Positions 14,335 to 52,226 of a stretch of 64,000 nucleotides of DNA are shown here, in pieces. Made by a program: the position numbers and the translations under genes. The notes under the pieces were generated by a model that saw only the letters and a program-made list of their open reading frames with translations, did not search any database and was not told the origin of the DNA. Position 1 is the stretch's first letter, and every line of letters starts with the position of its first letter. The DNA comes from Streptomyces pseudovenezuelae. GTDB taxonomy: Bacteria > Actinomycetota > Actinomycetes > Streptomycetales > Streptomycetaceae. The stretch covers positions 735,905 through 799,904 of the forward strand of contig NZ_KQ948148.1 of assembly GCF_001513955.1 (NCBI RefSeq), written 5' to 3'.

Positions 14335-14421
14335 GGTGGGTTGCCCGAGCGGCCTAAGGGAACGGTCTTGAAAACCGTCGTGGCAGCGATGTCACCGTGG
14401 GTTCAAATCCCACACCCACCG
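14335..14421 (+). tRNA. tRNA-Ser (anticodon TGA)
   Basis: Acceptor GGTGGGT (14335-14341) pairs with ACCCACC (14414-14420), discriminator G. The anticodon loop CTTGAAA gives TGA. The long variable arm and GTTCAAATC T-loop are typical of class II tRNA-Ser. CCA is not encoded. Confidence 0.95.
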
Positions 14422-14428
14422 CAGGTGA

Positions 14429-30768: not shown

Positions 30769-30841
30769 GCACTCGTAGCTTAACGGATAGAGCATCTGAC
30801 TACGGATCAGAAGGTTGCAGGTTCGAATCCTGCCGAGTGCA
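30769..30841 (+). tRNA. tRNA-Arg (anticodon ACG), integration target of the AICE
   Basis: Acceptor GCACTCG pairs with CGAGTGC (30834-30840), discriminator A. The stem TCTGA/TCAGA carries loop CTACGGA, anticodon ACG. Its anticodon-loop-to-3'-end part is repeated exactly at 52177-52220, so the element supplied the present 3' half and kept the tRNA functional. Confidence 0.96.
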
Positions 30842-30843
30842 CA
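30800..30843 (+). repeat. attL (44-bp direct repeat, inside tRNA-Arg)
   Basis: Runs from CTACGGATCAG in the anticodon loop to CGAGTGCACA just past the tRNA. Identical to 52177-52220; the flanking bases differ on both sides. Confidence 0.93.
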
Positions 30844-30932: not shown

Positions 30933-32216
30933 TCAGACGGCTACCGGGACACCGGCCGCGCCGTCGTCATCGTCCGGGTCGTTGCCGTCACCCCTTAGAG
31001 CATCCCCGACGCGATCGAACGCGGAGCGCTGCGAATCGAGCCGTACGAACGTGTAGATGTCCATGGTCACGCGGATCGAACTGTGGCCGAGGACTTCCAT
31101 GATCATGCGGGCGTCGGCGCCCTGTTCGTGGAGGAGCGAGGCGCAGGTGTGTCGAAGGTCGTGGAAGCGGACCTTGCGGACGCCGGCCCGTAGGGACAGC
31201 GCCTCGAAGGAGCGGTTCAGGTTGCGTGGCTCGATCGGGGTCCCGTTCTTCGTCGTGAAGACCAGACCGTGCCCCGTCCCCTTCCAGTTGTCGCCCGCAC
31301 TCTTCCGATCGGCGACTTGCTGGGCGCGCTGAGCACGGAGCGCCGTCACGCACTCGGACGGCAGGGCCACGCGTCGCGCCGAGCGCTGCGTCTTCGGAGC
31401 CACGATCAGCAGCTCACCGCCGACCCGCTGTAGAGCCTGTCGGACGGTGAGGACGCCGTCGTGAAGGTCGAGATCCGACCAGCGCAGGCCCAGCAGCTCA
31501 CCGCGACGCAGGCCGATGCGCACCGCCAGCTCGTACGCGGCCCAAAGCCGGTTGTCACGAGCCGCCGCCAGGAGCTGACGGCCCTCCTTGACCGTCAGTG
31601 GTTCGATCTCGCGCTTCGTTCCCATGCTCAGCTCCACGTTCCGAGCCACGTTGCGGGGCAACTCGTCTTCTCGTACGGCGTGCTGGAGAGCGGCACGCAT
31701 GATCACCAGCAGAAAGCGCACAGTACGGTCCGAGGGGAGTTTCTTGCAGCACTTACCGAGGGCGCAGCAGCGCCGCTTGTGCTCCGGACGCTTCTTGTCC
31801 TTGCCCTGCGCGCAGCACTGGCAGGTGACGGCCGTCTTCGCGAGGAAGGCGCGGATGTCGCGGGCGGTCAGCCGGACCAGCTTCTTCCGGCCGAACTCCG
31901 TGGTGACGTAGTTGCGAACGAGCGATTCGTAGTTGACGTAGGTCGTCCGGCGGACCTTGCCCTGCGCAACGTTCGTCAGCCAGTAGGCCAGATACTCGGC
32001 AATCGTCATCTTGTTGGTGGCGACCGGGAGCCCACTGAGGGAGTTCGCCTTGAGCTTGGTGAGCTTCTCGTGGGCGTCATCCCAGGTCTTGCCGTAGACG
32101 CTGCGCCGCTTGTATGTGCCGTCTGTCGTGAGGACGTACGCGCTTCCCTCCCAACGACCGTCCTTGCGCAGGTAGATGGTGCCCTCGTTGTTGGCGTTCT
32201 TCTTCGACTGGGCCAT
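30933..32216 (-). CDS. int: AICE tyrosine integrase
   Basis: 427 residues from ATG 32216. AP2-like arm-binding N-terminus (GTIYLRKDGRWEGSAYV), core-binding domain, then the catalytic domain with Arg in RIGLRRGELLGLRW, HDLRHTCAS, LGHSSIRVTMDIYTF holding the active Tyr. A cysteine-rich insert (CQCC ... RRCC ... KCCKK, about residues 137-165) may bind zinc and is seen in other AICE integrases. It overlaps the xis stop by one base (TGATG). It should recombine the tRNA-Arg att sites. Confidence 0.95.
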   Translation of the reverse strand: MAQSKKNANNEGTIYLRKDGRWEGSAYVLTTDGTYKRRSVYGKTWDDAHEKLTKLKANSLSGLPVATNKMTIAEYLAYWLTNVAQGKVRRTTYVNYESLVRNYVTTEFGRKKLVRLTARDIRAFLAKTAVTCQCCAQGKDKKRPEHKRRCCALGKCCKKLPSDRTVRFLLVIMRAALQHAVREDELPRNVARNVELSMGTKREIEPLTVKEGRQLLAAARDNRLWAAYELAVRIGLRRGELLGLRWSDLDLHDGVLTVRQALQRVGGELLIVAPKTQRSARRVALPSECVTALRAQRAQQVADRKSAGDNWKGTGHGLVFTTKNGTPIEPRNLNRSFEALSLRAGVRKVRFHDLRHTCASLLHEQGADARMIMEVLGHSSIRVTMDIYTFVRLDSQRSAFDRVGDALRGDGNDPDDDDGAAGVPVAV

Positions 32217-32398
32217 CAGGCGGCTTCCTGTTCGGTACGGAGGGAGATGTACGAGTCCACGGCGGCTTCGCTGATGCGTCGGCAGCGGCCGATCTTGAAG
32301 GAGGCGAGTTCGCGGGAGCGGATCAGGTCGTGGACCTTCCAGCGGCTGATGCCGAGACGCTCGGCGACCTGGTCCACGGTGAGCACGGCCGTCGTCAT
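32216..32398 (-). CDS. xis: Excisionase, MerR-like winged helix
   Basis: 60 residues starting MTTAVLTVDQVAERLGISRW. A helix-turn-helix of the excisionase family (VAERLGISRWKVHDLIRSRE). It starts within the stop of the replication gene (ATGA) and ends within the int start, so rep, xis and int are one coupled unit as in pSAM2. It should direct the integrase to excision. Confidence 0.9.
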   Translation of the reverse strand: MTTAVLTVDQVAERLGISRWKVHDLIRSRELASFKIGRCRRISEAAVDSYISLRTEQEAA

Positions 32399-33858
32399 GC
32401 AGGCAGCAGCCCTTCCTGTTTGGCGCGTTGGGTGAGGGCGATGTCGTGGCGGACCTGGGCAGCGAGGAGTTCTTCGCCGGGGCTGTAGCCACTGCTGAGG
32501 TAGGTCCAGGAGGAAGCAGTGACGAGGGTGGTGTTCTCGTCCTCGACGGGGAGGCCGGCCCGGATGCGGGCGGCTTCGGCCTGAGCCGTTCGCCAGGCGC
32601 GGCGTACATCGCGGAGTGCGCCCAGGGTGGTCGAGTAGGCGCGCGACTTGCTGGAGAAGTGGCCGCGGAAGCCGAGCATGTGAGCCCACTTCCAGAGCTT
32701 GAGGTGGGCGAACTCGGGGAGGTGGCCGAGGGCCCAGGCGGTGCGGATCATCTGCCGGGCGTGCTGCTGGACGGGGAGGTCTGTGAGGGGTTCGGCTTGG
32801 CCGGTGCCGTCGCAGTCGGCGCACAGGTCGCGGAATCCGTCCGGGCCGCGTACGTAGCCGCGTCCGACGCAGGGGCGGCATACGAGGGTGCGGTCCACGG
32901 TGCCCGCGCCTTCGGCGTTCTTGGTCGCGTACTTGGCCACGTATCCGGCGACCTTGGCATCCGTGAGTTCGCCGTCCCCCAAGGCGGAGATCTGGTCCAC
33001 CTTGAAGCGGTCGCCCCACCGGATGATGCGTTCGCCGACCGCGTCCGACTCGACCGTGAGCCGGGCCCGCTCGACCGCCAGGCCGACGGCGACCCGGAGG
33101 GTATCGAAGGTTGCCCAGGCCGGGGGCGAGGTGGTGTGGCCATCGGGCCCGTCGAAGCGGACGACCGCGTGGAAGTGGACCAGGCCGCGTTGTTGGTATT
33201 CGGCGACCTTGGCGAAGGAGACGCGGAGAGCCGCGTTGAGTGCCTTCTGCGTCATGCTGAGGTGTTCGGCGAGGGCGCGGCGCAGGTAGGTGGTGAAGCG
33301 TGCCCACAGAGCCCCGGCGTGAGCGTTCCACAACACGGCCCCGGCATAGTCGTAGCTCGTTGGACGGAGTGGGGTGCCGAGTTCGGGAGCGTCCTGGAGG
33401 TGGCTCTCGCCGCATGCGCAGGGGCGGGGCTTGCCCGCGTCGGTCGTCGGACGGTTGTGGACGGGGCCGAAGGACGGGGCGGTGAGGGTGACGAATGCAC
33501 GAGGGTGGTCGCGGACGGCTTCGGCGACGTTCTTGCCGCCGGACAGTCCGGCCTTGATCAGGTGGTAGGTGTCGGCCGCGTAGACGCGGGAGCAGGAGGG
33601 GCAGCGGGAGGCGCGGCGGTTGCCGCAGGTGGTGAGGAGGCGTCCGGAGGGTTCGTCCTCGGAGCGGTAGGAGCGGACCACTTGCTTGGTGGTCTGGTCG
33701 GTGGTGACTGTCCAGCCGTGCAGGTTGACGGGACTGGTGCAGCCGCGAAGGTCGCGGATCTGTTCGGCGACTCGGTCGAAGTCGTCCGTGTTGGCCAGTT
33801 CGACCAGGTGCCGCAGGCCGGGGCTGATGACGTGGCGCAGGTCGAGGGGGCGGCGCAT
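32395..33858 (-). CDS. Replication initiator protein (RepSA-like, rolling circle)
   Basis: 487 residues starting MRRPLDLRHVISPGLRHLV. Matches AICE replication initiators: a zinc-like CGNRRASRCPSCSRVYAADT near the N-terminus, the VHFHAVVRFDG segment typical of the HUH/rolling-circle metal motif, and a second Cys cluster (CRPCVGRGY ... CADCDGTG). It should nick the element's double-strand origin after excision. The longer upstream frame to 34092 overlaps the next gene and I reject it. Confidence 0.88.
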   Translation of the reverse strand: MRRPLDLRHVISPGLRHLVELANTDDFDRVAEQIRDLRGCTSPVNLHGWTVTTDQTTKQVVRSYRSEDEPSGRLLTTCGNRRASRCPSCSRVYAADTYHLIKAGLSGGKNVAEAVRDHPRAFVTLTAPSFGPVHNRPTTDAGKPRPCACGESHLQDAPELGTPLRPTSYDYAGAVLWNAHAGALWARFTTYLRRALAEHLSMTQKALNAALRVSFAKVAEYQQRGLVHFHAVVRFDGPDGHTTSPPAWATFDTLRVAVGLAVERARLTVESDAVGERIIRWGDRFKVDQISALGDGELTDAKVAGYVAKYATKNAEGAGTVDRTLVCRPCVGRGYVRGPDGFRDLCADCDGTGQAEPLTDLPVQQHARQMIRTAWALGHLPEFAHLKLWKWAHMLGFRGHFSSKSRAYSTTLGALRDVRRAWRTAQAEAARIRAGLPVEDENTTLVTASSWTYLSSGYSPGEELLAAQVRHDIALTQRAKQEGLLPA

Positions 33859-34009
33859 GAGTGGCGGAGAGTCCTTTCTGGCACGAGGGTGGGCCTGCGG
33901 GCAGCAGCGATTCAGTGCGCTCGGGCTGCTGCCCGCAGGCATGGCAGGTCGGGCCCAGGGGTGGGCGGCGGTGGGAAGTGCCGGAGAGGCCGGCGAAGGG
34001 GAGCAGCCG

Positions 34010-34708
34010 CTACAGAGCGGCGTGCAACGCGGTGGCCATGGGCAGGCCGATCCCGAGTCGCGTTTTGAGCTGGGCTGCCGTGATCGGTTCACCGTGCTCG
34101 GTGTGGTGAGACGTTGCGATGGAGCGTGCTTCGGTCAGCAGCGGCTCAGGAACCTTGATTGCGGGTGAAGCGGGAGCCGGGGCGATCTGAGGAGCGACCG
34201 AGGCCGGGGCAGGAACGGTGAGCGGCACCGCAGGACGGGAGACGTCGGAAGTCGTCTCAGGCTCCGACCCGATCGCGTTCGGCAGGGGAGTTGATGCGGC
34301 GGGGCGCGCAACAGTGTGGAAGGCGCGCAGGAGCTGCGGGCCGACGGTGCCCCAGCCGAGGAGGAGCAGCGGGGCGACCGCGTCGACGGCGGCACGGCCG
34401 TAGTGTCCGGCGACGATCGGTTCGGCGACGTTGAGGGCGAGGGTCAGCAGTCCGGAGAAGTGCATGAGGCGCGTGGCAGACGTCATCTGCTCTGCTGGGA
34501 GACCGCGTAGAGAGAGGTAGCGGAGTGCGACCAGGAGGCCGACCACGGATAGGTCCACCATCGGGGCGATGAGCGGTGCGATCGGGCGGGGCACGCCGAG
34601 GCGCAGGGCGAGGGACCAGACGTTGCCGAAGGAGAAGACGAATGCCAGCGCGGCAATGACGATCATGACGGCGGTGATGGTGCGCTGTGTGATCCGGTCT
34701 TCTGCCAT
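34010..34708 (-). CDS. DUF2637 membrane protein (Spd-like, AICE)
   Basis: 232 residues. Four hydrophobic segments in the first 125 residues (AVMIVIAALAFVFSFGNVWSL is the first), then a Pro/Ala linker and a small C-terminal helical domain (EPITAAQLKTRLGIGLPMATAL) that resembles a winged helix. DUF2637 proteins accompany the transfer gene of AICEs and streptomycete plasmids, where Spd proteins help intramycelial spread. It starts 58 bp after the transfer gene on the same strand. Confidence 0.82.
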   Translation of the reverse strand: MAEDRITQRTITAVMIVIAALAFVFSFGNVWSLALRLGVPRPIAPLIAPMVDLSVVGLLVALRYLSLRGLPAEQMTSATRLMHFSGLLTLALNVAEPIVAGHYGRAAVDAVAPLLLLGWGTVGPQLLRAFHTVARPAASTPLPNAIGSEPETTSDVSRPAVPLTVPAPASVAPQIAPAPASPAIKVPEPLLTEARSIATSHHTEHGEPITAAQLKTRLGIGLPMATALHAAL

Positions 34709-34766: not shown

Positions 34767-36173
34767 TCAGGCGTCGAGCTTCGTAAGATCCACATCCGCC
34801 ATGCGAGGGCCGAGGACGGCTTCCAGGAGGGCGTACGGGTGGGTGGTCAGGTCGGCCGTTTCTTCGGCTATCCGAGCCGCTTCCGTGTCGGGTACGTAGG
34901 GCGTACGGATGCGGGTGAAGCCGGGTTGCGACTGGTGGTTCATCGACGCGACGCCGACGTAGGTGGGGTCCTGGAGGTTGATCGGGTTGGCGTCCGGCCA
35001 TTCCCGGATCTCGTCGCCGAGAGCGGCCACGGCGGCTTCGGCGGTCTTCTGAGCGAAGCTCAGACCTACGGGGCAGACGTCGCGGATGAAGGTGGGGATC
35101 GCGTCGCCGGTGGACTTCTGAGTGGTGAGGATGACGAGTAGTCCCACGGACCGGCCCTTTTTAACCAGGTCTTCCACGAGCCGGGCGTTCTCGGCGGCGA
35201 GCGCGGCCAGCTTCTTCGTCTGCTGGTCGCTGCCCTTGTGGTCGCGGAAGTAGGTGTGTGCTTCGTCGATGATCAGTACGACGAGGGGCCAGCTCTCGGA
35301 GGGGCCGATGTCCCACATGGACTTCACGCCGAGCACGTGGCGCACCGACGCCGACCGGGCGCGGCGGAGCTCCACCAGGTGCCGGAACAGCTTGTTGGCC
35401 TCTTCCAGGTCATCCCCCACGAAGGCGAACATGCGCTGTACCCAGTCCGCGTAGTCGCCTTCATAGGCAGCCGACACCTTGCCGTCCGCGCAGGCGAACT
35501 GCACCGCAGGCGAGGGCGCCCAGTCGGAGAGGAGCCGGTTGATCAGGCTGGTCTTGCCGAAGCCGGGTAGGCCGGCCACGGTCACGCCGGGCACCTGAGT
35601 GAGGTTCACGGACACGGGCTGTGCGTACTCGTCCAGGCCCAGATCCCACTGGGCTGTCTCCTCCGGTGGCTCACCCGTGGGGTGGTGCTCGGTGGGAAAC
35701 TTCAGCGGATCCAGTCGCACACCCCGGATGAGGACCTGCCCAGGACTGTCCTGGGTGACCGCCACTCGCGTGCACCGCCAGGCGTCCGCTAGGTGTGGAC
35801 CCGCCTTCTGGAATTGCTGCAGCCCTACGCCAGGCAGGCACTGCGCCCGAGCGATCACTCCGTACGCGTCGTGCTTCACCTTCAGGGAGGGGATGAGGAC
35901 GCGCGGCTTGATGGGCTTGCCGTTCGTGTTCGCCAGCGACGCCAGCGCGGTCGGGGTCTTGTCCGTGGCGGACAGCTTGAGCATGGGTGCGAGCCGCTTC
36001 CAGCCCCACCGCACGCGAATGGCCTGCCGTATGGACTGCCGGGTCATGGCATCGGCGCGAACGTAGCGGACCACCCACCAGACTGCCCATCCGACAAGCA
36101 CGGCGAGCGCGAGGGCGACGACGAGCGGGACGTGACCGAAGATGCCTTCCGCCGGGGGGTTCGGATCCTTCAT
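34767..36173 (-). CDS. FtsK/SpoIIIE-type conjugal DNA translocase (TraB/TraSA-like)
   Basis: 468 residues. One N-terminal membrane helix pair (VPLVVALALAVLVGWAVWWVV), then an FtsK-like ATPase: Walker A in AGLPGFGKTSL (about 225-235), Walker B in LVVLIIDEAHTYF. In Streptomyces this single protein forms a hexameric pore and moves double-stranded element DNA between hyphae after binding clt repeats. Its start overlaps the next upstream gene by ATGA. Confidence 0.92.
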   Translation of the reverse strand: MKDPNPPAEGIFGHVPLVVALALAVLVGWAVWWVVRYVRADAMTRQSIRQAIRVRWGWKRLAPMLKLSATDKTPTALASLANTNGKPIKPRVLIPSLKVKHDAYGVIARAQCLPGVGLQQFQKAGPHLADAWRCTRVAVTQDSPGQVLIRGVRLDPLKFPTEHHPTGEPPEETAQWDLGLDEYAQPVSVNLTQVPGVTVAGLPGFGKTSLINRLLSDWAPSPAVQFACADGKVSAAYEGDYADWVQRMFAFVGDDLEEANKLFRHLVELRRARSASVRHVLGVKSMWDIGPSESWPLVVLIIDEAHTYFRDHKGSDQQTKKLAALAAENARLVEDLVKKGRSVGLLVILTTQKSTGDAIPTFIRDVCPVGLSFAQKTAEAAVAALGDEIREWPDANPINLQDPTYVGVASMNHQSQPGFTRIRTPYVPDTEAARIAEETADLTTHPYALLEAVLGPRMADVDLTKLDA

Positions 36174-44800: not shown

Positions 44801-45512
44801 CAAGCTGCTCCCACCAGGCGCCGGCGGGTCGTGAGAGCAGGAGAATGCGAAGCGGTAGCTTCCAGAGTTCTAGGGACTGACGGATGAACTCCGACAGGTC
44901 ATGCTCGGGCCATCGCTCCGCGTAGTCGACGATGACCAGGACACCTGTGGCGTCTTCGCCCACCACGGGCGCGCTTCGCATGTCCGGCGCTGAGTTCTTC
45001 GTGTGCTGGGCTTCCAGAGCTATCCAGCCAGCTTCACCCCAGGTCCGGGCGAGGTGCCGGGCGAACCGGGTCTTGCCCTCGCCGCCGGGGGCGTGCAGAA
45101 GGCGTAGGAGTACGTCCTCGTCACGGTCGCGCCATGTGGCGAAGTCCTCCTCCTCGTCGGACCGCCCGGAGAAGTCCACCACCTCATCGCGCGTGCGCAG
45201 GAGCTTGCTCGGTTGCTGACGTCCCTGTGCGGCAGCCGAAAGGGAAATGCGGTTCTCCAGGAACAGCTTGTTGATCCGCCAGGGGGGTGTGACCTGGGGG
45301 ATGATCATGTCGCGCCCCGCCTGATAGACGGTCGCGTTTTCGTCCGCCCACGCGACGATGCTGGAAAGGGGCCGGTCCCACTCGGTCAAGGACGGTCCAG
45401 AGCGATGTCGCGACCTGCCTCGCCAAGCTTCGTCCGCCGAACGTCCGGCGTCGCTCCCATCCTCGTCAGCAAGAGATCCATGGCAGCCCCCAGGTTCACC
45501 AATAGTGGACAA
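41853..45512 (-). CDS. Large STAND-like NTPase with helical-repeat (TPR-like) C-terminus
   Basis: 1219 residues, possibly from a TTG at 45512; no ribosome site is visible, so the start is uncertain. Residues 63-68 (YQAGRD) carry a QxGRD motif. Walker A lies at about 142-149 (PGGEGKTR), Walker B at 191-198 (VLVIVDYA). A helical winged region follows, and from about 520 to the end Ala/Leu-rich helix pairs look like tetratricopeptide repeats. The layout is that of STAND sensors used in anti-phage defence and regulation. It is the last gene of the cyclase operon. Confidence 0.82.
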   Translation of the reverse strand: MSTIGEPGGCHGSLADEDGSDAGRSADEAWRGRSRHRSGPSLTEWDRPLSSIVAWADENATVYQAGRDMIIPQVTPPWRINKLFLENRISLSAAAQGRQQPSKLLRTRDEVVDFSGRSDEEEDFATWRDRDEDVLLRLLHAPGGEGKTRFARHLARTWGEAGWIALEAQHTKNSAPDMRSAPVVGEDATGVLVIVDYAERWPEHDLSEFIRQSLELWKLPLRILLLSRPAGAWWEQLEYSLDRDLDLVAEAVRLPPLGARLEDRERAFLEARNAFAARLKVSELEAVNPPPGLLSDPAYSLILTIHMAALAAVDAYHQKTSAPVDPARLSSYLLKRERDHWQNLERRKRLRTDAEALESAVYAASLCGPLRRREAYEIAVLMGTASNNERARKIVEDHAFCYPSPSVLREEEDVLEPLQPDRLAEDFVALTLPGHGAEFTGQRWMAEATDQLLKSSSEDDSRSVRAALTTLIEMAPRWRHISVDYLSPLLKARPRIVLECGNASLATLANNPHIELGTLRIVAETLRSHQHKGLGTGAAAILARVTKARLQEVEDPAEQATLCHELTAIYQLAGLFDQAAETAHQEIALLRPLAEAGSDSHSAALADALFSLCAALTEQGSHKEAAQAGAEALKIKDSLSVGGAPDDSRPTAPERSAGTFGTALSASLVHHAEWLFYESGDLRALMICDEAVSRLRRVSEWGPNRRVYLARALHSQASFLLGMADVEAAWRTAAQSISEWRKLFAEKRSVHCAERLVQALALMSTVQVRKGHTRAAIDSASEAVSLARKVRDADKRRTVPLAEALAVLGDTMAHESPIKALTVSSESLRLYRSLARKEPRHREALAVALAKHTTILLKCGRVTTALPLSLESVTLTGTEANTRVPVPGDKTVLALVLGARADALKMAGDHDQALTLARQAAEASEELAQRLPWFAPDLAERQSRIADILLAKGELSNSVTMSLIALRTYAHFRQIYAPLPWLDVRLTTSYVRALVAVGDLRRSARGIRRLGSTLREIGGTEGVETAVFLALLALHQWAANHREEAAASARNAVRLYQARGAERPGVRLELATVLEMKGKMSVEQGHSESGLRDLITANTLLTELRKNGHENPSLVPFQVRCLTSLGSAYHALARDQEARAATREAVSLIRTDELSATPLEIAVDAHITFARIRLERRAHLSEVAPVVRAAQHMCTAAGATSGLAKQEAELTDLMRRLTK

Positions 45513-45586
45513 ATGCTACATGCGGTTGAAGTCCCTGCGAACGGGTGCGCACCGACCGGGAAAGCCGCAGGGCGCGGTCTCAGCGT

Positions 45587-46429
45587 TCACTCCGACGGCT
45601 CCTGTGGCCTCGACCGGTCCGAGCCGACGATGTAGTCGCGGCCGACCTGGATAAGGCGGGCGTTGCCGCTGGCCCGCCCCCGAAGGCGCACCGAGGTGCC
45701 GCGTTCGGCGGGTCTGGCGTCAAAGTTGGCGTCCCGCTGCCTCGCAGTGCGGTCCCCTTGCCCGGGCTCCACCGCCTTGACAGAGAGATAGGGTTTGATC
45801 ACTGCCGTGACCAGACCCGGCACGAAGACCCAGCACATCTCCTCAAATTCCGGCTTGCCGTTGACTCTGGCTGTGGCCGGAAGGAAGTGATGTGGTTGCA
45901 GCGTGGGTGTGCGGCCTGCCCGGACGGCTCGCCGGAACACCGGGTCTGACACCACGGCCGCCAGCGGAAGACCGTGGTCGACCGCCGCCGCCATGGCCTG
46001 ATAAGCCGGTTCGCTGTCGATGAGCCGGCACGCGTCATTGACCGCATCACCCCGGTGCGCGGGTGGCTCCAGCGGGCCGACATGCACGCTCGCGCGCAGC
46101 ATGAGTTTCGGTTCGTCGGCTAGCCGGGTTCGCGCATGTTGCTCCAGCGCCCGGCTGAGGTTTGCGAGAAAAGGGTCGACAAGTCGGGCCGCGTGTCGCG
46201 CGTGAAGTACGTAGATGGCTCCGTCCCCCCGGTCTTTCACCGCGTCCTCTGGCGTCGAGACGTCGCTGATACCGCTCTGCGTGAACAACGTTGAGACGAT
46301 GTCGTCGAGGCGGGCGCGGGTGGGCGCCATGTGCATTTCGGGAATCTGGCTATACCCCTTCATATCGATGACCAGGAGCGCGTGCTCTTGGGGCACGTCA
46401 GCTGCGTCGGACGCGGGGAGAGCGGGCAT
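45587..46429 (-). CDS. Class III-like nucleotide cyclase (Pycsar PycC-type candidate)
   Basis: 280 residues. The cyclase core is residues about 15-150: first metal Asp22 in VIDMKGYS, second Asp69 in DRGDGAIYVL, and the Asn131/Arg135 pair in GDAVNDACRL that stabilises the transition state. Single-domain cyclases of this size next to a PycTM-type effector make cCMP or cUMP in Pycsar immunity. The C-terminal 90 residues are not part of the core and hold IQVGRDYIV (260-268), a motif also found in the NTPase downstream. Soluble. Confidence 0.85.
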   Translation of the reverse strand: MPALPASDAADVPQEHALLVIDMKGYSQIPEMHMAPTRARLDDIVSTLFTQSGISDVSTPEDAVKDRGDGAIYVLHARHAARLVDPFLANLSRALEQHARTRLADEPKLMLRASVHVGPLEPPAHRGDAVNDACRLIDSEPAYQAMAAAVDHGLPLAAVVSDPVFRRAVRAGRTPTLQPHHFLPATARVNGKPEFEEMCWVFVPGLVTAVIKPYLSVKAVEPGQGDRTARQRDANFDARPAERGTSVRLRGRASGNARLIQVGRDYIVGSDRSRPQEPSE

Positions 46430-46558
46430 GGAACCTGGCCTTTCTGGCTCATGAGAGCTTTCCGGCTCATGAGAAGGGGTGAGATGTGACGTACGCGATG
46501 GTCCTCGGTCTCACGGTCGTGTGGTGCCCAGGAGTGGGCAGCACACAGGCGTGTTGCG

Positions 46559-47245
46559 TCACTCCCGGGTGTTTGCGTGAGTCTGGATCGACGCGATGTC
46601 CCGTACGACGAGACCACCGGATGCCTCCGTGTCGAGCCACCCCTGCACTCGCCATGGTCGGAGAGCTGATCCGACGGCGTTGCGAGATGCGCCGATCATC
46701 TGTGACAGCTCCGTCTGCGTCAGCCGTAGGACGTGATGGGTGCCCGGGGCCGAGGCCGCCTGGAGCAGGCGGCCGAGGGTAGAGGCCAGCCGGACAGGCA
46801 CTGGCGCAGTGGCCATCTCCAGGCGTACCGCCTCCGCTTCGCGGACTCGTGCTATGGCGTGACGCAGCAAAGGGCCCAGAAGTTTGTTGCTGTTGGTGAA
46901 GGACAGGAAAGCCGATGCGGGTACCACGTGAACCCTGCAGACCTCGGCAGCCGTCACAGACGCCGTACGCGGCTGATTATCCAGGACGGCCAGCTCTCCG
47001 AGAATTTCACCCGAGCCGCGCACTGACAGTAATGTCTGCTCCCCTTGAGCTCCCGTCACCGTGATCAGGACGGAGCCGGAAGCCAGTAGGACGACGTGAG
47101 TGCCGCGATCACCTTGGCGTAGCAGTACAGACCTTGCCGGCCGCACGTGAAGCGGCGCCAGGTCGCACAGTTGCGCCCACAGATGCTGACCGATGACCGA
47201 GCTGTGTGACCGGTACATACCCACCCCCGTCGTGATGGCTGTCAC
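46559..47245 (-). CDS. Crp/Fnr-type cyclic-nucleotide-responsive regulator
   Basis: 228 residues from GTG 47245; ATG 47218 is an alternative. A cyclic-nucleotide-binding domain (about 25-140) with an intact phosphate cassette, GELAVLDNQPRTASV, then a winged helix (TQTELSQMIGASRNAVGSAL, about 180-200). The preserved Glu and Arg of the cassette suggest it can bind a cyclic nucleotide. Placed between the membrane effector and the cyclase, it may sense the product of the cyclase and tune the operon. Confidence 0.88.
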   Translation of the reverse strand: MTAITTGVGMYRSHSSVIGQHLWAQLCDLAPLHVRPARSVLLRQGDRGTHVVLLASGSVLITVTGAQGEQTLLSVRGSGEILGELAVLDNQPRTASVTAAEVCRVHVVPASAFLSFTNSNKLLGPLLRHAIARVREAEAVRLEMATAPVPVRLASTLGRLLQAASAPGTHHVLRLTQTELSQMIGASRNAVGSALRPWRVQGWLDTEASGGLVVRDIASIQTHANTRE

Positions 47246-47257
47246 CCCGTGATGTTC

Positions 47258-47776
47258 TCAAATGGTGATGTACAGGATCAACAGTGCTGCTCCCGATACG
47301 CTGAGCGCCGCCATCGTGACGTCCACGGCACACCTGAGGATCCGGAACTTCCGTTGAGCCAGTGTCGTGAACAACGCGAGCCGCTCGGCTTGCAACAGCT
47401 GATGCCGGTCCGCTTCCGGCGCCACGGCGTCCGCCTCGGCGGTCTCCGCCCGCCCGGGAGTAGCGGTGAGACACGCGAAGATCCTCAACTTGCCGTCTGG
47501 CGGGAGGACGGGGCGTATGGCCCACATCGTCATCATGAGTGCCGCACCGAGAAGGCCAGCGACACCCACCAAGGCGGTCATAGGCACCCATGCAGATTTC
47601 GGCATCGTGGACAACAGCGCCGCGTCGGCGGTCAGTAGACCGCCGATCAGGCCGCACAAGATTGCCGCTTTCATGTCTGCGCGCTGTAACTCCTGGAACA
47701 TGCCGTCCGCTTCGGGCTCAAGCCGACTACACCACACCGGTCCGTGCGCGCCGGAGTTCCCACTGGGCTCGGACAT
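47258..47776 (-). CDS. Pycsar-type transmembrane effector (DUF5706/PycTM-like)
   Basis: 172 residues from ATG 47776, with AGGGGGG just upstream; the frame to 47848 has no such site. It fits the PycTM family: ADMKAAILCGLIGGLL at the first helix (38-57), a second helix (63-87), a central loop with FACLTATPG and a QRKFRILR motif before the last helix (147-170). In Pycsar such proteins permeabilise the membrane when they sense a cyclic pyrimidine nucleotide. First gene of the operon; the Crp-type gene follows after 12 bp. Confidence 0.82.
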   Translation of the reverse strand: MSEPSGNSGAHGPVWCSRLEPEADGMFQELQRADMKAAILCGLIGGLLTADAALLSTMPKSAWVPMTALVGVAGLLGAALMMTMWAIRPVLPPDGKLRIFACLTATPGRAETAEADAVAPEADRHQLLQAERLALFTTLAQRKFRILRCAVDVTMAALSVSGAALLILYITI

Positions 47777-48056
47777 ACGCCCCCCTGACGTCTCAGCCAC
47801 TGTCTGTGATCTCAACCGTGCCAGGCCGACAGCAGCGAGGGTGACCAACGCAGGGCGCCAGGCCTGCCGAACGCGTCACACACTGGTCGCAACACCAGCC
47901 CCTGAGGGCGTTGCCTTAACCAAGCCACGGCGGACCTATTAGAGGCGTGGACCTCCCCTGTTGGCGGAGAAGCGTGCCCAACTTCTTCGACTCACAGCGC
48001 AGGGTTTGATTAACGCGCCGCGTGCCCACGGCTGGCAGACGCCCCCCGATGGACCG

Positions 48057-48240
48057 TCAGCAGAGCTGAGTGATGACCTTGAGCAGGGTGCCGCTTCCGC
48101 CGCAGATCAGGTGGTGTTTGCTACCCGTCTTGCGCCGGTCGACTGGCAACGGACCGGTGTGTCGGCACACCCATTTTTTCGTGTGGATGTGTGAGCCGTC
48201 CACACAGGCTCGTGACCAGTCGAGTTCGCCAGCCGCGTTC
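48057..48240 (-). pseudogene. IS5-family transposase fragment
   Basis: The minus frame contains GELDWSRACVDGSHIHTKKW, then GPLPVDRRKTGSKHHLICGG and LLKVIT, matching the first catalytic Asp region of IS5-type DDE transposases widespread in Streptomyces. Both ends are missing and the frame stops right after LKVIT. No terminal inverted repeats seen. It marks a past insertion between two cargo modules. Confidence 0.8.
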
Positions 48241-48365
48241 ACTAACCGTGACCTCGCTGGGCTCGGAGGCTTTACCGTGATTCCCGCGGTTCCCCGCTCG
48301 ATCTGGGGCGCTATAGAAGCGCCGACAGGTGGCAATCGGAGGCAGGTCTCTTGTTGAGAGTCAGA

Positions 48366-49412
48366 CTATGTCTGCGGAAGCGTAGCTCGTTGAGCCGCAA
48401 GTTCTGCCCTTCCGTAGTAGCCATCAGCCTTATAAAGGAAGGCGAAACTACTGACGATTAGACCAACTGCTGTGCATAGCCACAGTGCTATATGTCCTCC
48501 TCCGATGGGGTGTACGAAGAAGGACCCGATGGTTCCGCTGCCAAGTAGCGACGTGACCGCGAGAGCGGCGGCACGCAATCCTTTGCCTAACGTTCGGCGG
48601 CGGTCTTCCGACTTGGCGAAGTCATCCATAAGGTCTGTACCGCTGTCGATTTCCCCGATGCGTGTCTTCAGGATGAAGGCGTGCAATCGTTCAAGGGACT
48701 CGATGCTGGCATCCGGAGAGATCTGCTCGGCGATGCTTTCACGGATGTCAGTATGGAGGTTGTGGCCGCCGATGCTCTGAGCGATCTGGTTGAAGAGCTT
48801 GTCTTTCCACCAGTAGGAGGGGCCACCATCATCCCCGGGATACTTGCTTTCCAAGCCTTGGTGTCCATAGTGCCGTTCAGGCTCCTCAGTTAGCTTGATG
48901 AGGATCAGCTGTGCAATGGGCATGAGTGGCGCAAGGCGAACGCGGGAGTGCGCGAAGCTAACGATCTCGACAGGCATATGGCCCTGCCAGCCGGGATTGA
49001 TGAAGTCACCAGTGCAGTGAATCATTAAGCCGAGTCGGGCGTAAGAACTGCGCCCCTCGATCTTGCCAGCGTAGAGCGGCGGCACCGTGAACTTCTCGTA
49101 GGTTCGGCCGAGCAGGACCTCATTGGGCTTGAGATCAATGGCCTCGCCGGGGCGATATTTCACTTTCTTCCAGCGGCGTCTAGGCGCTAACTCTTGGAGT
49201 TGCTTGTTGCGGAGATCGAGTACAGGCCGGCGCCAAAATCGCCAACCAGGCGGACGCGGGACCTTTCGAGCTTTCCAGAAATGAGTATCGAGGCGCAGGT
49301 CGATCGAGCAGGGCTGAATCTGCCTGTCAGGATCGAACCCGTAGTCCGGGTAGCGAGCCTCAATCCCCAAGTCTGGAAGGATATCTCTAATGGTCTTGTC
49401 CGCTGCGTACAA
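48366..49412 (-). CDS. dCTP-deaminase-like protein fused to two membrane helices
   Basis: 348 residues. It starts with TTG directly after the previous stop, with GGAGG at ideal spacing. Residues about 30-200 match dCTP deaminase/dUTPase: IQPCSIDLRLD, GKIEGRSSYARLGL, DFINPGWQGHMPVEI (catalytic Glu149) and YPGDDGGPSYW. Normal Dcd proteins have about 190 residues; here a helical linker and two membrane helices (279-298, 305-327) follow. Stand-alone dCTP deaminases act in phage defence by depleting dCTP, so a membrane-tethered defence enzyme is likely. Confidence 0.82.
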   Translation of the reverse strand: MYAADKTIRDILPDLGIEARYPDYGFDPDRQIQPCSIDLRLDTHFWKARKVPRPPGWRFWRRPVLDLRNKQLQELAPRRRWKKVKYRPGEAIDLKPNEVLLGRTYEKFTVPPLYAGKIEGRSSYARLGLMIHCTGDFINPGWQGHMPVEIVSFAHSRVRLAPLMPIAQLILIKLTEEPERHYGHQGLESKYPGDDGGPSYWWKDKLFNQIAQSIGGHNLHTDIRESIAEQISPDASIESLERLHAFILKTRIGEIDSGTDLMDDFAKSEDRRRTLGKGLRAAALAVTSLLGSGTIGSFFVHPIGGGHIALWLCTAVGLIVSSFAFLYKADGYYGRAELAAQRATLPQT

Positions 49413-49658
49413 CTACGCCTCCGCCTCATCCCACGCCTGGATATCCTTTAGTGCGAAGCTACGCTCAACCTGCTTGTCGAGATCAATGGCATCCATTAGC
49501 CATTGCTTGCCAGGGTGCCAATCGGTTGAACCAAACCAGATCTTGAGTGGCTGGATATGTCGCCAGCCCTTTTCGCCCCGGTAGTTGATGTAAAGGATCC
49601 TGACTTCTTGTTCGGACAACACAGTGAGCTCGTTATCGGAAGAGGGTGTATCCGTCAT
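49413..49658 (-). CDS. WYL-like small protein
   Basis: 81 residues. The core, INYRGEKGWRHIQPLKIWFG followed by STDWHPGKQWLMDAIDLDKQ, has the pattern of the small WYL-like proteins (YRGExxxRxIxPxxIxFG, HPxxQWLL, DxDKxxxR) that may bind a nucleotide or nucleic-acid ligand. It lies 4 bp after the DUF1653 gene and directly abuts the dCTP-deaminase-like gene, so all three are co-translated. Confidence 0.75.
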   Translation of the reverse strand: MTDTPSSDNELTVLSEQEVRILYINYRGEKGWRHIQPLKIWFGSTDWHPGKQWLMDAIDLDKQVERSFALKDIQAWDEAEA

Positions 49659-49662
49659 ACTT

Positions 49663-49920
49663 TCATTCCCCCTCTTCCTTCACCAACTCGAATCGCTGTT
49701 GTGTCCCCGTCTGGGTTTCTACGGTTTCTTGGAACATGGTGAGTGGTCGAACCCATACACCATGATCACCGTAGAGTGCTTGGTAAACGACGAGCTGTTC
49801 GGATGTCTCGGTGTGTTGTGCCACGTGCAAAACTCGGTACAAGTTTCCCTTGTAGTGTCGATAGACACCCGTGCTCAACTGGCACCTTTTTCCGTAGAGC
49901 ATAGATTTACGGTAAGGCAA
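49663..49920 (-). CDS. DUF1653 protein
   Basis: 85 residues. The DUF1653 pattern is plain: GVYRHYKGNLYRVLHVAQHT, then LVVYQALYGDHGVWVRPL and FQETVE. These small proteins are common and uncharacterised; they often sit near nucleotide- or phage-related genes. First gene of the three-gene operon ending in the dCTP-deaminase-like protein. Confidence 0.88.
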   Translation of the reverse strand: MPYRKSMLYGKRCQLSTGVYRHYKGNLYRVLHVAQHTETSEQLVVYQALYGDHGVWVRPLTMFQETVETQTGTQQRFELVKEEGE

Positions 49921-50170: not shown

Positions 50171-50361
50171 CTGACCACGCGGGCGTTCTGGTCCTATTGG
50201 AATCGGACGGCAATGGCACCAGTTGGCTTGCTCTGTTGCAATGCCGGCAAGCGTAGTGATCCGTGATGGCGGCTGACAGGTGGCGGCCATGTAGAGCTCT
50301 CGATGCCGTGAGCGCGGGAAACCCGGTGGAACGGCACTCGCGGACCATCCACACTGCCTTC

Positions 50362-51780
50362 ATGGACAACACCCCGACTGGCGGCTGGTCACCGGCCGAC
50401 AACCCCTATGCCATCGCTGTCTCCGAAGCGCGGTGGTGGAAGGAATCCGCTCGGCTTGCCGTTCTGCGCATGCGTCCAAATGATGACGCCCGCTTCGGCT
50501 GGTTCAGCACCCAGCAGATCGACGCGCGGCAGCTCGTTTTCGCTCTACGGCAACTGATCTCCGCTGAAGACCTTGAACAGTTCGCGCTCAAGGAGATCGG
50601 CATCGACCAGGCCGTGCGGGATGCACTCACCGAGGCGCGGCAGCGGTTTGAGAACGCGCTCCCTGGTATCAAGGAGATGCGCGACGGCCTCATGCACTTC
50701 GAGGAGTGGGCGCGCGGCCTGGGGCGCGGTCCGCAGAAGAAGCAACGGGATGATGGTGTCCTGCCGCGAGATGTTGCACGACACTTCTGGGGCTTCGGGT
50801 TTAACCCGACCGCGGGCACGGTGTCGTTCGGCCCTTACATCATCAGTATTGATACAGCAGAGCGGGCCGCTCATGAATTCGCTCATGCCATCTATATGGC
50901 AGCACATGAGGTGGATAAGAGGAATACGGCAGAGCTGCGCGCAAAGACGATTGCTGCCCTGACGGTTGGGGGTATTCAATCCGGCGTGCCTGATGCTGGC
51001 TTCAAGGTCTCGCCCGGTGATGATCTGAGCATCTGGGTATCGCTGGACCGAACTCCTGGAGTCGAGGAGTTGGTGTACATCGGCCTTGCAACGCGCATTG
51101 TTGAGGCCCTGGCATCGGCCGACTTGCGGCTTGTCTCGAACATAGATACTGCGGACCAGGCGGCAGTCGTTCGACTGGCACGTGGTGAGTGTCTGTATGT
51201 GGCCGCAGACACCGTTGAGGCAGATGAATCAGAACCTGATGGGTCGATAGAACCTATCACCCTGGCGCAATTCCAGCGGACCGTGGATCTGGCTGTAGAA
51301 AAGCTCCGAGAGGCTGATCGCTGTGCAGAGATCGGGGCCTTCGAGGCAGCGTGCGTGTTGGTCGGTGCCGCCGTTGAGTCTGCGCTCATCGCTCAGGTCT
51401 GCGTCTTCCAATCGGAAGTCCGCGCCGCAAATCTTTGGCGAAAGCACCGCAAGCGGAAGACGGGCCCCGAAGAAGAAACACCGCTACTTAAGTGGACTCT
51501 TGAAGACCTCATTCAGGTAGCAGTCAGGATGAAGTGGCTGCCAACCTCCGGTGAGGCTGGTTCTGCGACCGAGCCAGCAGAGAGGCTTGTCGGTGAGGTC
51601 GGCGATGCCGTGCGGTTCATCCAAGAGGTGAGGAATTTCGTTGCCCATCCGGGAAAGTACGTCCGTAGCGAGTATTGGCCAACTATCGGGCGCGCTGAGT
51701 ATGACGTGGTGTACGGGGTCGCGCGGGCGGTGCTGGATCATCTGCACGAAGCAATAGAGAAACTTGGGTCATGCACGTGA
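50362..51780 (+). CDS. Large protein with two HEPN-like Rx4H motifs
   Basis: 472 residues from ATG 50362 (MDNTPTGGWSPADN); the frame upstream to 50263 lacks a ribosome site. All-helical and soluble. An N-terminal MRDGLMHFEEWARG (R107, H112) and a C-terminal EVRNFVAHPGKY (R424, H429) both fit the Rx4-6H signature of HEPN ribonucleases. A HEFAH (171-175) matches HExxH of zinc proteases but sits in an Ala-rich helix and may be chance. Codon usage and GC are lower than in the host. Family unknown to me; a defence RNase is plausible. Confidence 0.7.
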   Translation: MDNTPTGGWSPADNPYAIAVSEARWWKESARLAVLRMRPNDDARFGWFSTQQIDARQLVFALRQLISAEDLEQFALKEIGIDQAVRDALTEARQRFENALPGIKEMRDGLMHFEEWARGLGRGPQKKQRDDGVLPRDVARHFWGFGFNPTAGTVSFGPYIISIDTAERAAHEFAHAIYMAAHEVDKRNTAELRAKTIAALTVGGIQSGVPDAGFKVSPGDDLSIWVSLDRTPGVEELVYIGLATRIVEALASADLRLVSNIDTADQAAVVRLARGECLYVAADTVEADESEPDGSIEPITLAQFQRTVDLAVEKLREADRCAEIGAFEAACVLVGAAVESALIAQVCVFQSEVRAANLWRKHRKRKTGPEEETPLLKWTLEDLIQVAVRMKWLPTSGEAGSATEPAERLVGEVGDAVRFIQEVRNFVAHPGKYVRSEYWPTIGRAEYDVVYGVARAVLDHLHEAIEKLGSCT

Positions 51781-52176
51781 GACGGTTTTAGCTTGACGTC
51801 TTCTGACCTCATGCCGTCGGCCAACCTTTACCAGGGCGCGCCTCGGCGCAGCGCGGGGCGGGCCGAAGGCAGAAGCGTCGCCCGCAGCGGAACCGGGAAG
51901 CGCGCCTGGCGGAGCGGAGCGCAGCAGGGGCTTGAACCCGTAGAGAAAGTTGTAGTTCAGCCGATCTGCGGGGGCCGACTGCCGGAGTGGTGGTGGCCAG
52001 AGTCGATCTTGTTGGAGCTGTAGCGGGTCGGCTGGTAGATCGTCATGACGACGGCGCGACCGGTCGGCGTTGACGGCAGCGCTGACGGCAACGACGGCAC
52101 ACGGACGCACATAATCGCTGGCATGAGCAATCGGAGTAGGAGGCCGTCGGCAGCCCTCACGGCAAGCTGCCCGATC
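51781..52176. other. Right end of the AICE, no gene seen
   Basis: 396 bp between the HEPN-like gene and attR. It holds the right arm-type repeats near its end. A CGCGCCTCGGCGCAGCGCGG-like GC stretch occurs at about 51837-51858. No gene is supported. Confidence 0.45.
52070..52099. repeat. Right arm-type repeats (TGACGGCA)
   Basis: TTGACGGCAG (52070-52079), CTGACGGCAA (52082-52091) and CGACGGCA (52092-52099) match the left-end repeats at 30893-30914 in the same orientation. Confidence 0.6.
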
Positions 52177-52220
52177 CTACGGATCAGAAGGTTGCAGGTT
52201 CGAATCCTGCCGAGTGCACA
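52177..52220 (+). repeat. attR (44-bp direct repeat of tRNA-Arg 3' part)
   Basis: Identical to 30800-30843. It carries only the 3' half of the tRNA, so this side is the displaced original end, and the host terminator follows seven bases later. Confidence 0.93.
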
Positions 52221-52226
52221 CAGTTC

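What the first reader, a model, noticed from the sequence alone, without database searches (positions are those of the whole stretch)
48366..49920. Membrane-tethered dCTP-deaminase-like protein with DUF1653 and WYL-like partners
A Dcd-like core with GRSS and a catalytic-type Glu is fused to a helical linker and two membrane helices, almost doubling the usual length. It is tightly coupled to two small proteins of unknown role. dCTP deaminases are proven anti-phage enzymes; the membrane anchor and the partners look like a new version, with the partners perhaps as sensor or regulator.
Basis: partly seen in the sequence, partly recalled or inferred. Interest (0 to 1): 0.78.

Follow-up and report, generated by a model that had tools for sequence, protein, structure and literature searches.

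The report
Membrane-anchored dCTP-deaminase-like protein on mobile element
A soil bacterium's jumping DNA element carries a three-gene set whose main protein is a probably membrane-anchored relative of a DNA-building-block enzyme with an altered active site, possibly a weapon or sensor in fights between bacteria, viruses and other mobile DNA.

Summary
On the minus strand lie DUF1653 (49663-49920), a stand-alone WYL-like domain (49413-49658) and a 348-aa dCTP-deaminase (Dcd) family protein (48366-49412) whose C-terminal helical extension has one clear and one marginal membrane segment. The set recurs in the same order in two other Streptomyces, each time at a different chromosomal site, under purifying selection. 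It is not core metabolism: the genome has a normal Dcd elsewhere. In the window the set is cargo of a 21.4-kb actinomycete integrative element bounded by exact 44-nt tRNA-Arg repeats, which also carries a PycTM-like gene. The Dcd domain keeps the catalytic Ser/Arg/Glu, but all three copies replace the motif-III Asp by Asn (plus Ala to Gly, Gly to Asp, Gln to Asp); 0 of 32 compared Dcds do. The matching Asp-to-Asn change in a dUTPase nearly abolishes hydrolysis but not binding (published). So the protein is either a deaminase unable to finish the dUTPase step or a nucleotide receptor. Defence or inter-element conflict is the most likely role, but unproven: P0001 matches no defence model, and only the window copy has a plausible defence neighbour. 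New variant of a known kind.

The parts
48366..49412 (-). Dcd-family protein, 348 aa (P0001): Dcd domain 1-205, helices 202-213, 220-230, 237-249, long helix 258-291 and helix 305-344; putative TM segments 282-300 and 308-326
   Evidence: Pfam DCD 2.5e-28; TIGR02274 over cut-off; AF2 model mean pLDDT 77.6; VIA-align Z 23.6 to 2qxx, 183 aligned, rmsd 2.7; hydropathy
49413..49658 (-). stand-alone WYL-like domain protein, 81 aa (P0002)
   Evidence: Pfam WYL E 3.4e-4, below cut-off; phrog_3715 2.8e-23; AF2 model; first 15 Foldseek rows all WYL regulators (PafBC, BrxR, CapW, DriD), best E 0.013
49663..49920 (-). DUF1653 protein, 85 aa (P0003)
   Evidence: Pfam DUF1653 9.4e-30; solved relative 3be3 E 2.9e-14
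30800..30843 (+). one 44-nt att-like repeat (3' half of tRNA-Arg 30769-30842)
   Evidence: exact direct repeat, tRNA
52177..52220 (+). other 44-nt repeat: far end of the element carrying the set
   Evidence: exact direct repeat, spacing 21377
30933..32609 (-). tyrosine integrase of the element (ORF as listed; the true start is probably internal)
   Evidence: Pfam Phage_integrase 1e-28
32395..34092 (-). RepSA replication initiator of the element
   Evidence: Pfam RepSA 6.8e-146
34767..36173 (-). FtsK/SpoIIIE-like transfer protein of the element
   Evidence: Pfam FtsK_SpoIIIE E 2.9e-4 and AAA_22 1.2e-4, both below cut-off
47258..47848 (-). PycTM-like membrane protein (P0007), neighbouring cargo, not part of the three-gene set
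   Evidence: Pfam PycTM 28.1 bits, cut-off 27.2; weak PADLOC 2TM-effector and PycTM matches, E 7.6e-4 and 1.5e-3

Best explanation
A three-gene cargo module of actinomycete integrative elements used in conflict with phages or rival mobile DNA. SHOWN (by sequence and prediction): a Dcd-family domain fused to a helical, probably membrane-inserted tail; two small partner genes; mobility; constraint; altered active site. INFERRED: the Dcd trimer sits on the cytosolic face of the membrane (positively charged flank before the first TM segment) and acts on dCTP. With Ser122, Arg126 and Glu149 kept but motif-III Asp replaced by Asn, I expect at most deamination of dCTP to dUTP without efficient hydrolysis of dUTP, so dCTP falls and dUTP rises, hurting a replicating invader. 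The WYL-like protein is the likely sensor or licensing subunit (precedent: the WYL1 protein stimulates Cas13d); DUF1653 has no assigned step.
For: Same three genes in the same order in window, Streptomyces sp. P3 (84% identity for the Dcd protein) and S. fumanus (74%); three different sites: tRNA-Arg element with exact 44-nt repeats, a 6.4-kb interval between 97% identical 91-nt repeats overlapping tRNA-Ser in P3, absent at the homologous site in the window, and an ~11-kb variable interval in S. fumanus with an integrase gene at one edge. dN/dS about 0.07-0.18 where computable. Separate ordinary Dcd and Dut in the genome. Dcd fold Z 23.6. Ser/Arg/Glu/Gln/Tyr kept in 3 of 3. PycTM-like neighbour in the same element. 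AICE cargo is reported to include phage-resistance genes (PMC9513070, abstract and passages). WYL1-Cas13d precedent in PMC9122601 (passages).
Against: No PADLOC model matches P0001 or P0003. Asn139 and Asp194 replace residues that are Asp and Gln in 32 of 32 other Dcds, so even deamination may be lost. At the P3 and S. fumanus copies, of 10 neighbour ORFs scanned with PADLOC 8 matched nothing, one NUDIX protein matched PDC-S07 (E 2.5e-10) and one HTH protein matched several HTH models (best 3.1e-11), which read as generic domain matches; Pfam shows ordinary families there. Only three loci known. The first TM segment is marginal. The P3 DUF1653 frame looks broken.
Confidence: 0.38

Rival explanations
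1. Nucleotide receptor: the Dcd domain no longer catalyses; it binds a pyrimidine deoxynucleotide and switches the attached two-helix membrane segment, which perturbs the membrane (logic like two-TM effectors of cyclic-nucleotide defence, but with a dUTPase-fold receptor).
For: Asp to Asn in 3 of 3 copies against 0 of 32, aligned to the host dUTPase motif-III Asp; in Mtb dUTPase the D83N row reads 0.0002 of wild-type efficiency (marked unreliable by the authors) with a Kd of 1.5, below the 1.8 and 3.9 of two other variants (PMC5519681, table passage without its header); the motif-III Asp holds the catalytic water and the 3'-OH (PMC3905902, passages); the membrane part is fused directly to the domain.
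Against: Deaminase Ser/Arg/Glu are fully kept, which a pure receptor need not keep; the three C-terminal parts match no SLATT or other two-TM family in Pfam at E <= 5 and hhalign finds no likeness to the neighbouring PycTM-like protein (3-row profile).
Confidence: 0.27
2. Addiction module: P0001 is a membrane-toxic protein, and P0002/P0003 are its antidotes, keeping the integrative element in the population.
For: Small genes directly upstream of and coupled to a probable membrane protein on a mobile element; three different sites.
Against: P0002 and P0003 belong to families found away from P0001 in phages (377 and 39 of 50,697 records at E <= 0.01), unlike dedicated antitoxins; the DUF1653 frame seems broken in P3 while P0001 stays intact, though P0002 could be the antidote.
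Confidence: 0.15
3. Element-serving nucleotide metabolism: the protein adjusts dCTP/dUTP/dTTP for the element's own replication or transfer, or counters host defence.
For: Plasmids and phages carry Dcd genes (57 of 72,556 plasmid and 64 of 50,697 phage records with a match to P0001).
Against: None of those records has a match covering 80% of P0001; a membrane anchor and altered motif III are odd for a supply enzyme.
Confidence: 0.15

Closest known systems
Bifunctional dCTP deaminase-dUTPase (M. tuberculosis 2qxx/4a6a) and E. coli Dcd (1xs1)
   Same: Fold over residues 1-205 (Z 23.6 for 2qxx and 21.5 for 1xs1); Ser/Arg/Glu set and C-terminal Tyr
   Different: Ala115, Gly116, Asp119 and Gln174 (host Dcd numbering) replaced by Gly, Asp, Asn and Asp; about 140 extra C-terminal residues with membrane segments
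Anti-phage dCTP deaminases (DcdV type; recalled, primary papers not held)
   Same: Would act on the same nucleotide if active
   Different: Recalled to be zinc-dependent deaminases with an N-terminal kinase-like domain; P0001 has the dUTPase-superfamily fold and only three Cys (35, 133, 313); no PADLOC match
WYL-domain regulators PafBC, BrxR, CapW, DriD; accessory WYL1 of Cas13d
   Same: P0002 predicted fold
   Different: P0002 is a bare domain without HTH or WCX; by residue spacing (inference) the Arg pair needed for ssDNA binding in PafB (R211/R214, PMC11804915) falls on Ala69 and Asp72, and the WYL Tyr on Leu54
SLATT / PycTM two-TM defence effectors
   Same: Cytosolic sensor or enzyme domain plus two TM helices (general logic, recalled)
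   Different: No sequence match
AICEs of the pSAM2 type
   Same: Integrase, RepSA, FtsK-like, GntR, NUDIX, tRNA 3'-end repeats
   Different: Nothing unusual seen; the cargo is the new part

Membership tests
dCTP deaminase / Dcd-Dut (PF22769, TIGR02274) | Curated profile above cut-off | tested here: met
   Pfam 99.5 bits vs 27; NCBIfam 102.6 vs 92.8
dCTP deaminase / Dcd-Dut (PF22769, TIGR02274) | Dcd fold including C-terminal arm | tested here: met
   AF2 model, Z 23.6 to 2qxx, residues 1-205
dCTP deaminase / Dcd-Dut (PF22769, TIGR02274) | Catalytic Ser, Arg and Glu (S111/R115/E138 in E. coli numbering; roles of Ser and Arg recalled) | tested here: met
   S122, R126, E149 in 3 of 3 and 32 of 32; Glu149 aligns with the site of the E138 variants
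dCTP deaminase / Dcd-Dut (PF22769, TIGR02274) | Motif-III Asp and preceding Ala | tested here: not met
   Asn139 and Gly135 in 3 of 3; Asp and Ala in 32 of 32 others
dCTP deaminase / Dcd-Dut (PF22769, TIGR02274) | Deaminase activity | not testable with these tools
   needs biochemistry
Anti-phage dCTP deaminases (zinc-dependent, DcdV type) | Match to a defence-system model | tested here: not met
   0 PADLOC families at E <= 1; that PADLOC holds such a model is only inferred, from PMC11124354 (abstract start in listing; passages)
Anti-phage dCTP deaminases (zinc-dependent, DcdV type) | PCxxC zinc motif (recalled) | tested here: not met
   three separate Cys only, 35, 133 and 313
WYL domain (P0002) | Pfam profile above cut-off | tested here: inconclusive
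   21.0 bits vs 21.8
WYL domain (P0002) | WYL small beta-barrel fold | tested here: met
   first 15 of the Foldseek rows are WYL proteins, best E 0.013, none at 0.001; Z 7.3-7.9 for BrxR, CapW and PafBC with Hfq/Sm-type rows at about 6, so moderate
WYL domain (P0002) | ssDNA-binding Arg residues of PafB | tested here: inconclusive
   mapped by spacing only; A69/D72 at R211/R214, R66 at R208, K62 at R204
DUF1653 (P0003) | Pfam profile above cut-off | tested here: met
   103.2 bits vs 23.5
SLATT or other 2TM defence effector | Family profile match of the C-terminal part | tested here: inconclusive
   no SLATT or PycTM hit at E <= 5 for 3 C-terminal parts; the C-terminal part was not folded and searched alone
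AICE | Integrase, RepSA, FtsK-like protein and tRNA-derived direct repeats | tested here: met
   the FtsK-like match is below Pfam's cut-off

The most novel reading that the evidence does not exclude
A dUTPase-superfamily enzyme turned receptor: a membrane-tethered Dcd whose motif-III Asp-to-Asn change keeps nucleotide binding but blocks hydrolysis, so that a shift in pyrimidine dNTPs (as in phage replication), together with a stand-alone WYL subunit, opens or collapses a two-helix membrane effector. It would be a defence system that reads the dNTP pool directly.
Probability: 0.22. Interest if true: 0.8.

Novelty: new variant of a known kind. Interest (0 to 1): 0.5.

Why it matters
Dcd and dUTPase are textbook nucleotide enzymes; a mobile, membrane-anchored version with a consistently altered catalytic motif and a WYL partner would link dNTP-pool sensing or depletion to membrane-level immunity, a combination that I did not find in the family libraries searched. 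It also gives a small, testable operon in laboratory-friendly Streptomyces.

Tried and rejected
Core-metabolism reading: rejected, a normal 191-aa Dcd is encoded elsewhere and a Dut too. Viral origin of the fusion: two viral-contig scans with P0001 or its alignment gave no relative; plasmid and phage tblastn gave no match covering 80% of P0001. More distant fusions: the C-terminal part in 396 phylum genomes gave self plus one weak 50-residue hit (E 3.2e-4), in 296 class genomes self plus one weak hit (E 0.0023); neither weak hit was followed. The WYL-like alignment in 391 order genomes found only the window's and one known set; the DUF1653 alignment in 293 order genomes found only self.

ssDNA sensing by P0002: attractive because WYL proteins such as PafBC and DriD bind ssDNA, but not claimed, since the key Arg pair maps to Ala/Asp. 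Sequence-profile searches of the PDB with the WYL-like alignments gave only short lectin/WDR24 matches, judged implausible. DUF1653-dUTPase link: one phage record labels a DUF1653-like protein 'dUTPase', but a PHROGs scan of its 106 aa shows only a weak match to phrog_21101, a family that also matches P0003 (it was not scanned with Pfam), so I take the label as a mis-annotation and dropped the link. The 81-member set (80 viral loci and the host Dcd) shows Ala and Asp in 81 of 81 and Gln in 80 of 81 at these sites, but was partly selected by a peptide pattern containing the motif, so I rely on the 32-member set: the 29 best non-self loci plus 3 phage or plasmid records. It is a similarity-ranked, not a random, sample.

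Literature: DUF1653 occurs in 1 paper (listing); 0 papers hold three of the five terms dCTP deaminase, DUF1653, WYL domain, transmembrane helices, Pycsar; SLATT with dUTPase gave 11 papers, none on this by title, one of them read in passages (PMC9503650); dCTP deaminase with anti-phage and transmembrane gave 2 (listing). These searches cover only the open-licence library.

Full report
WHAT IS THERE. The minus strand of 48366-49920 encodes, in order of transcription, DUF1653 (85 aa), a WYL-like domain protein (81 aa) and a 348-aa Dcd-family protein. Gaps are 4 nt and 0 nt; in all three known copies the WYL-like stop codon TAG is followed directly by a TTG start of the Dcd gene. P0001 matches Pfam DCD (E 2.5e-28, residues 26-173), NCBIfam dCTP_deam above cut-off and phrog_1663 dCTP deaminase (E 1.3e-31). 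Its AF2 model, built on 44 sequences, has mean pLDDT 77.6: mostly about 90 or more over the Dcd core except a stretch at 51-80 (60-67), and 50-83 over the part after residue 190. Residues 1-205 match the M. tuberculosis Dcd-Dut 2qxx at Z 23.6, 183 residues, rmsd 2.7 (Foldseek). After it come helices 202-213, 220-230, 237-249, 258-291 and 305-344. Hydropathy marks 308-326 clearly and 282-300 marginally as membrane segments, with 6-7 positive and 2 negative residues just before the first, which by the positive-inside rule (established knowledge) puts the Dcd domain in the cytosol.

THE SET IS REAL AND MOBILE. A scan of genome contigs for close relatives found two more loci, Streptomyces sp. P3 (84% identity) and S. 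fumanus (74%); both carry all three genes in order, though the P3 DUF1653 frame loses similarity after about codon 60. In a sample of 391 genomes of the order only the window's genome and one other have the Dcd protein at E <= 1e-30. The genes evolve under purifying selection: dN/dS 0.07 and 0.08 for the Dcd protein in two pairs, 0.15 and 0.18 for the WYL-like gene in two pairs and 0.14 for DUF1653 in one pair; dS exceeds 1 in all of these, so the values are rough. Two further pairs were saturated (Dcd P3-S. fumanus, WYL-like window-S. fumanus), and the two DUF1653 pairs with P3 were not made. The linker and membrane part changes faster than the Dcd part but is still constrained (dN 0.148 vs 0.068, window against P3).

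In the window, the 3' half of tRNA-Arg (30800-30843) is repeated exactly, 44 of 44 nt, at 52177-52220, and between the repeats lie an integrase, RepSA (E 6.8e-146), an FtsK-like protein (below Pfam's cut-off), a GntR regulator and a NUDIX protein: an actinomycete integrative and conjugative element with the set as cargo. In P3 the set lies between two 91-nt repeats, 97% identical, that overlap the 5' part of tRNA-Ser (they may be att-like or a duplication), next to a NUDIX gene and a 124-bp piece 98% identical to the window element's GntR gene region; the homologous tRNA-Ser site in the window (14335-14422) does not hold the set. In S. fumanus it lies in an approximately 11-kb interval that interrupts synteny with the window's own genome (which has about 4.6 kb of other DNA there), with an integrase gene at one edge. 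So three copies, three sites, all on or beside mobile-element sequence. The genome also encodes an ordinary 191-aa Dcd and a Dut elsewhere.

ACTIVE SITE. Aligned with 32 other Dcds (the 29 best non-self loci and 3 phage or plasmid records), the three copies keep Ser122, Ser123, Arg126, His132, Thr134, Glu149, Gln168, Tyr182 and Tyr191, as do 32 of 32. They differ at four sites where the others are uniform: Gly135 for Ala, Asp136 for Gly, Asn139 for Asp, Asp194 for Gln (3 of 3 against 0 of 32 each; recounted). Glu149 aligns with the site of the E. coli E138 variants and Gly135 with the Mtb A115 site (alignments; titles). Asn139 also aligns with the motif-III Asp of the host dUTPase. In dUTPase that Asp holds the attacking water and the sugar 3'-OH (PMC3905902, passages). 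In Mtb dUTPase the D83N row reads 0.0002 of wild-type efficiency, marked unreliable, and a Kd of 1.5 (PMC5519681, table passage; I did not see the header, columns read from the text); that D83 is the motif-III Asp is my inference. In Mtb Dcd-Dut a Phe at A115 inactivates (same paper); Gly is smaller, so it is not predicted to block the site.

PARTNERS. P0002's family is widespread in phages: 377 of 50,697 phage records at E <= 0.01, against 5 of 72,556 plasmid records; 15 IMG/VR loci hold it, often inside longer proteins of unknown function. Its AF2 model (mean pLDDT 83.7) has WYL regulators as the first 15 Foldseek rows, all with modest E-values (best 0.013), and BrxR, CapW and PafBC lead the VIA-align list at Z 7.3-7.9 with Hfq/Sm-type rows near 6. 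WYL domains bind nucleic acids or related ligands and can serve as accessory regulators (WYL1 with Cas13d; PMC9122601, passages). By spacing from the conserved Trp, the PafB residues R211/R214 that are needed for ssDNA binding (PMC11804915, passages) correspond to Ala69/Asp72 in P0002, and R208 to Arg66, which is invariant in the 14-member alignment; I therefore do not claim ssDNA binding. DUF1653 has a solved relative named only 'uncharacterized protein' (3be3); 39 of 50,697 phage records and 28 of 72,556 plasmid records hold a relative at E <= 0.01.

HOW IT MOST LIKELY WORKS. A cytosolic, membrane-anchored Dcd trimer, switched by the WYL-like subunit, most likely acts on dCTP in conflict with phages or competing elements. 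The complete conservation of the deaminase Ser/Arg/Glu argues for retained chemistry, the Asp-to-Asn change against the dUTPase half-reaction: the prediction is deamination uncoupled from hydrolysis, hence dCTP loss and dUTP gain. The main rival is a receptor that only binds a pyrimidine dNTP and triggers the membrane hairpin. Addiction-module and element-supply readings are less likely but open. Evidence for conflict is contextual: mobile cargo, and in the same element a PycTM-like gene above the Pfam cut-off, a CRP-like protein and a large protein with weak TPR matches. Against it: no PADLOC match for P0001 or P0003. Near the other two copies I scanned 14 neighbour ORFs with Pfam: NUDIX, HTH (three), DUF6879, GNAT, glyoxalase, IS110 transposase, integrase, four without any match and one with only a sub-threshold match; not every ORF there was scanned. 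Ten ORFs there, all among these 14, were scanned with PADLOC: 8 without a match, a NUDIX protein matching PDC-S07 (E 2.5e-10) and an HTH protein matching 14 models (best HTH_VI 3.1e-11), which I read as generic domain matches.

NOVELTY. As a protein it belongs by descent to the Dcd family, but it fails one family-wide active-site feature, so 'it is a dCTP deaminase' is not established. I did not find the membrane-tethered architecture with WYL and DUF1653 partners in the libraries and papers searched, within the limits of those collections. The analogy to the proven anti-phage dCTP deaminases is functional at most; from recall these are zinc enzymes of a different fold, and the primary papers were not held. 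New variant of a known kind.

Noticed in passing
window 41853-47848 (-): Upstream cargo in the same element: 1219-aa protein with weak TPR matches, a 280-aa protein without Pfam match that looks like a class III cyclase by eye (GDG motif), a CRP-like regulator and a PycTM-like membrane protein: possibly a split Pycsar-like system.
   Followed up: partly
window 45300-45329 and 45623-45652 (-): The 1219-aa protein (VYQAGRDMII near its N-terminus) and the 280-aa protein (IQVGRDYIVG near its C-terminus) share a short GRD peptide motif, perhaps a pairing signal.
   Followed up: no
window 52176-52223: A 14.3-kb Streptomyces longwoodensis plasmid (NZ_CP108973.1) carries a 48-nt, 97.9% match to the att sequence at its very end, perhaps an excised element.
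   Followed up: no
window 48070-48241: Remnant of an IS5-family transposase between the set and the PycTM-like gene (87% to an annotated IS5 transposase).
   Followed up: no
L004 5494-5730: The P3 DUF1653 ORF loses similarity after about codon 60, as if frame-broken, while its WYL-like and Dcd genes stay open.
   Followed up: no
L144 10639 onward and L145: In P3 another stretch of about 19 kb on the other side of the same tRNA-Ser gene is bounded by a repeat of its 3' end: probably a second element at one site.
   Followed up: partly
window 50263-51780 (+): 505-aa divergent protein inside the element with no Pfam match above cut-off (weak RecJ_C- and DUF4145-like hits).
   Followed up: no
L157 2471-2791: A phage DUF1653-like protein is annotated 'dUTPase' although PHROGs shows only a weak DUF1653-type family match: probable mis-annotation.
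   Followed up: partly
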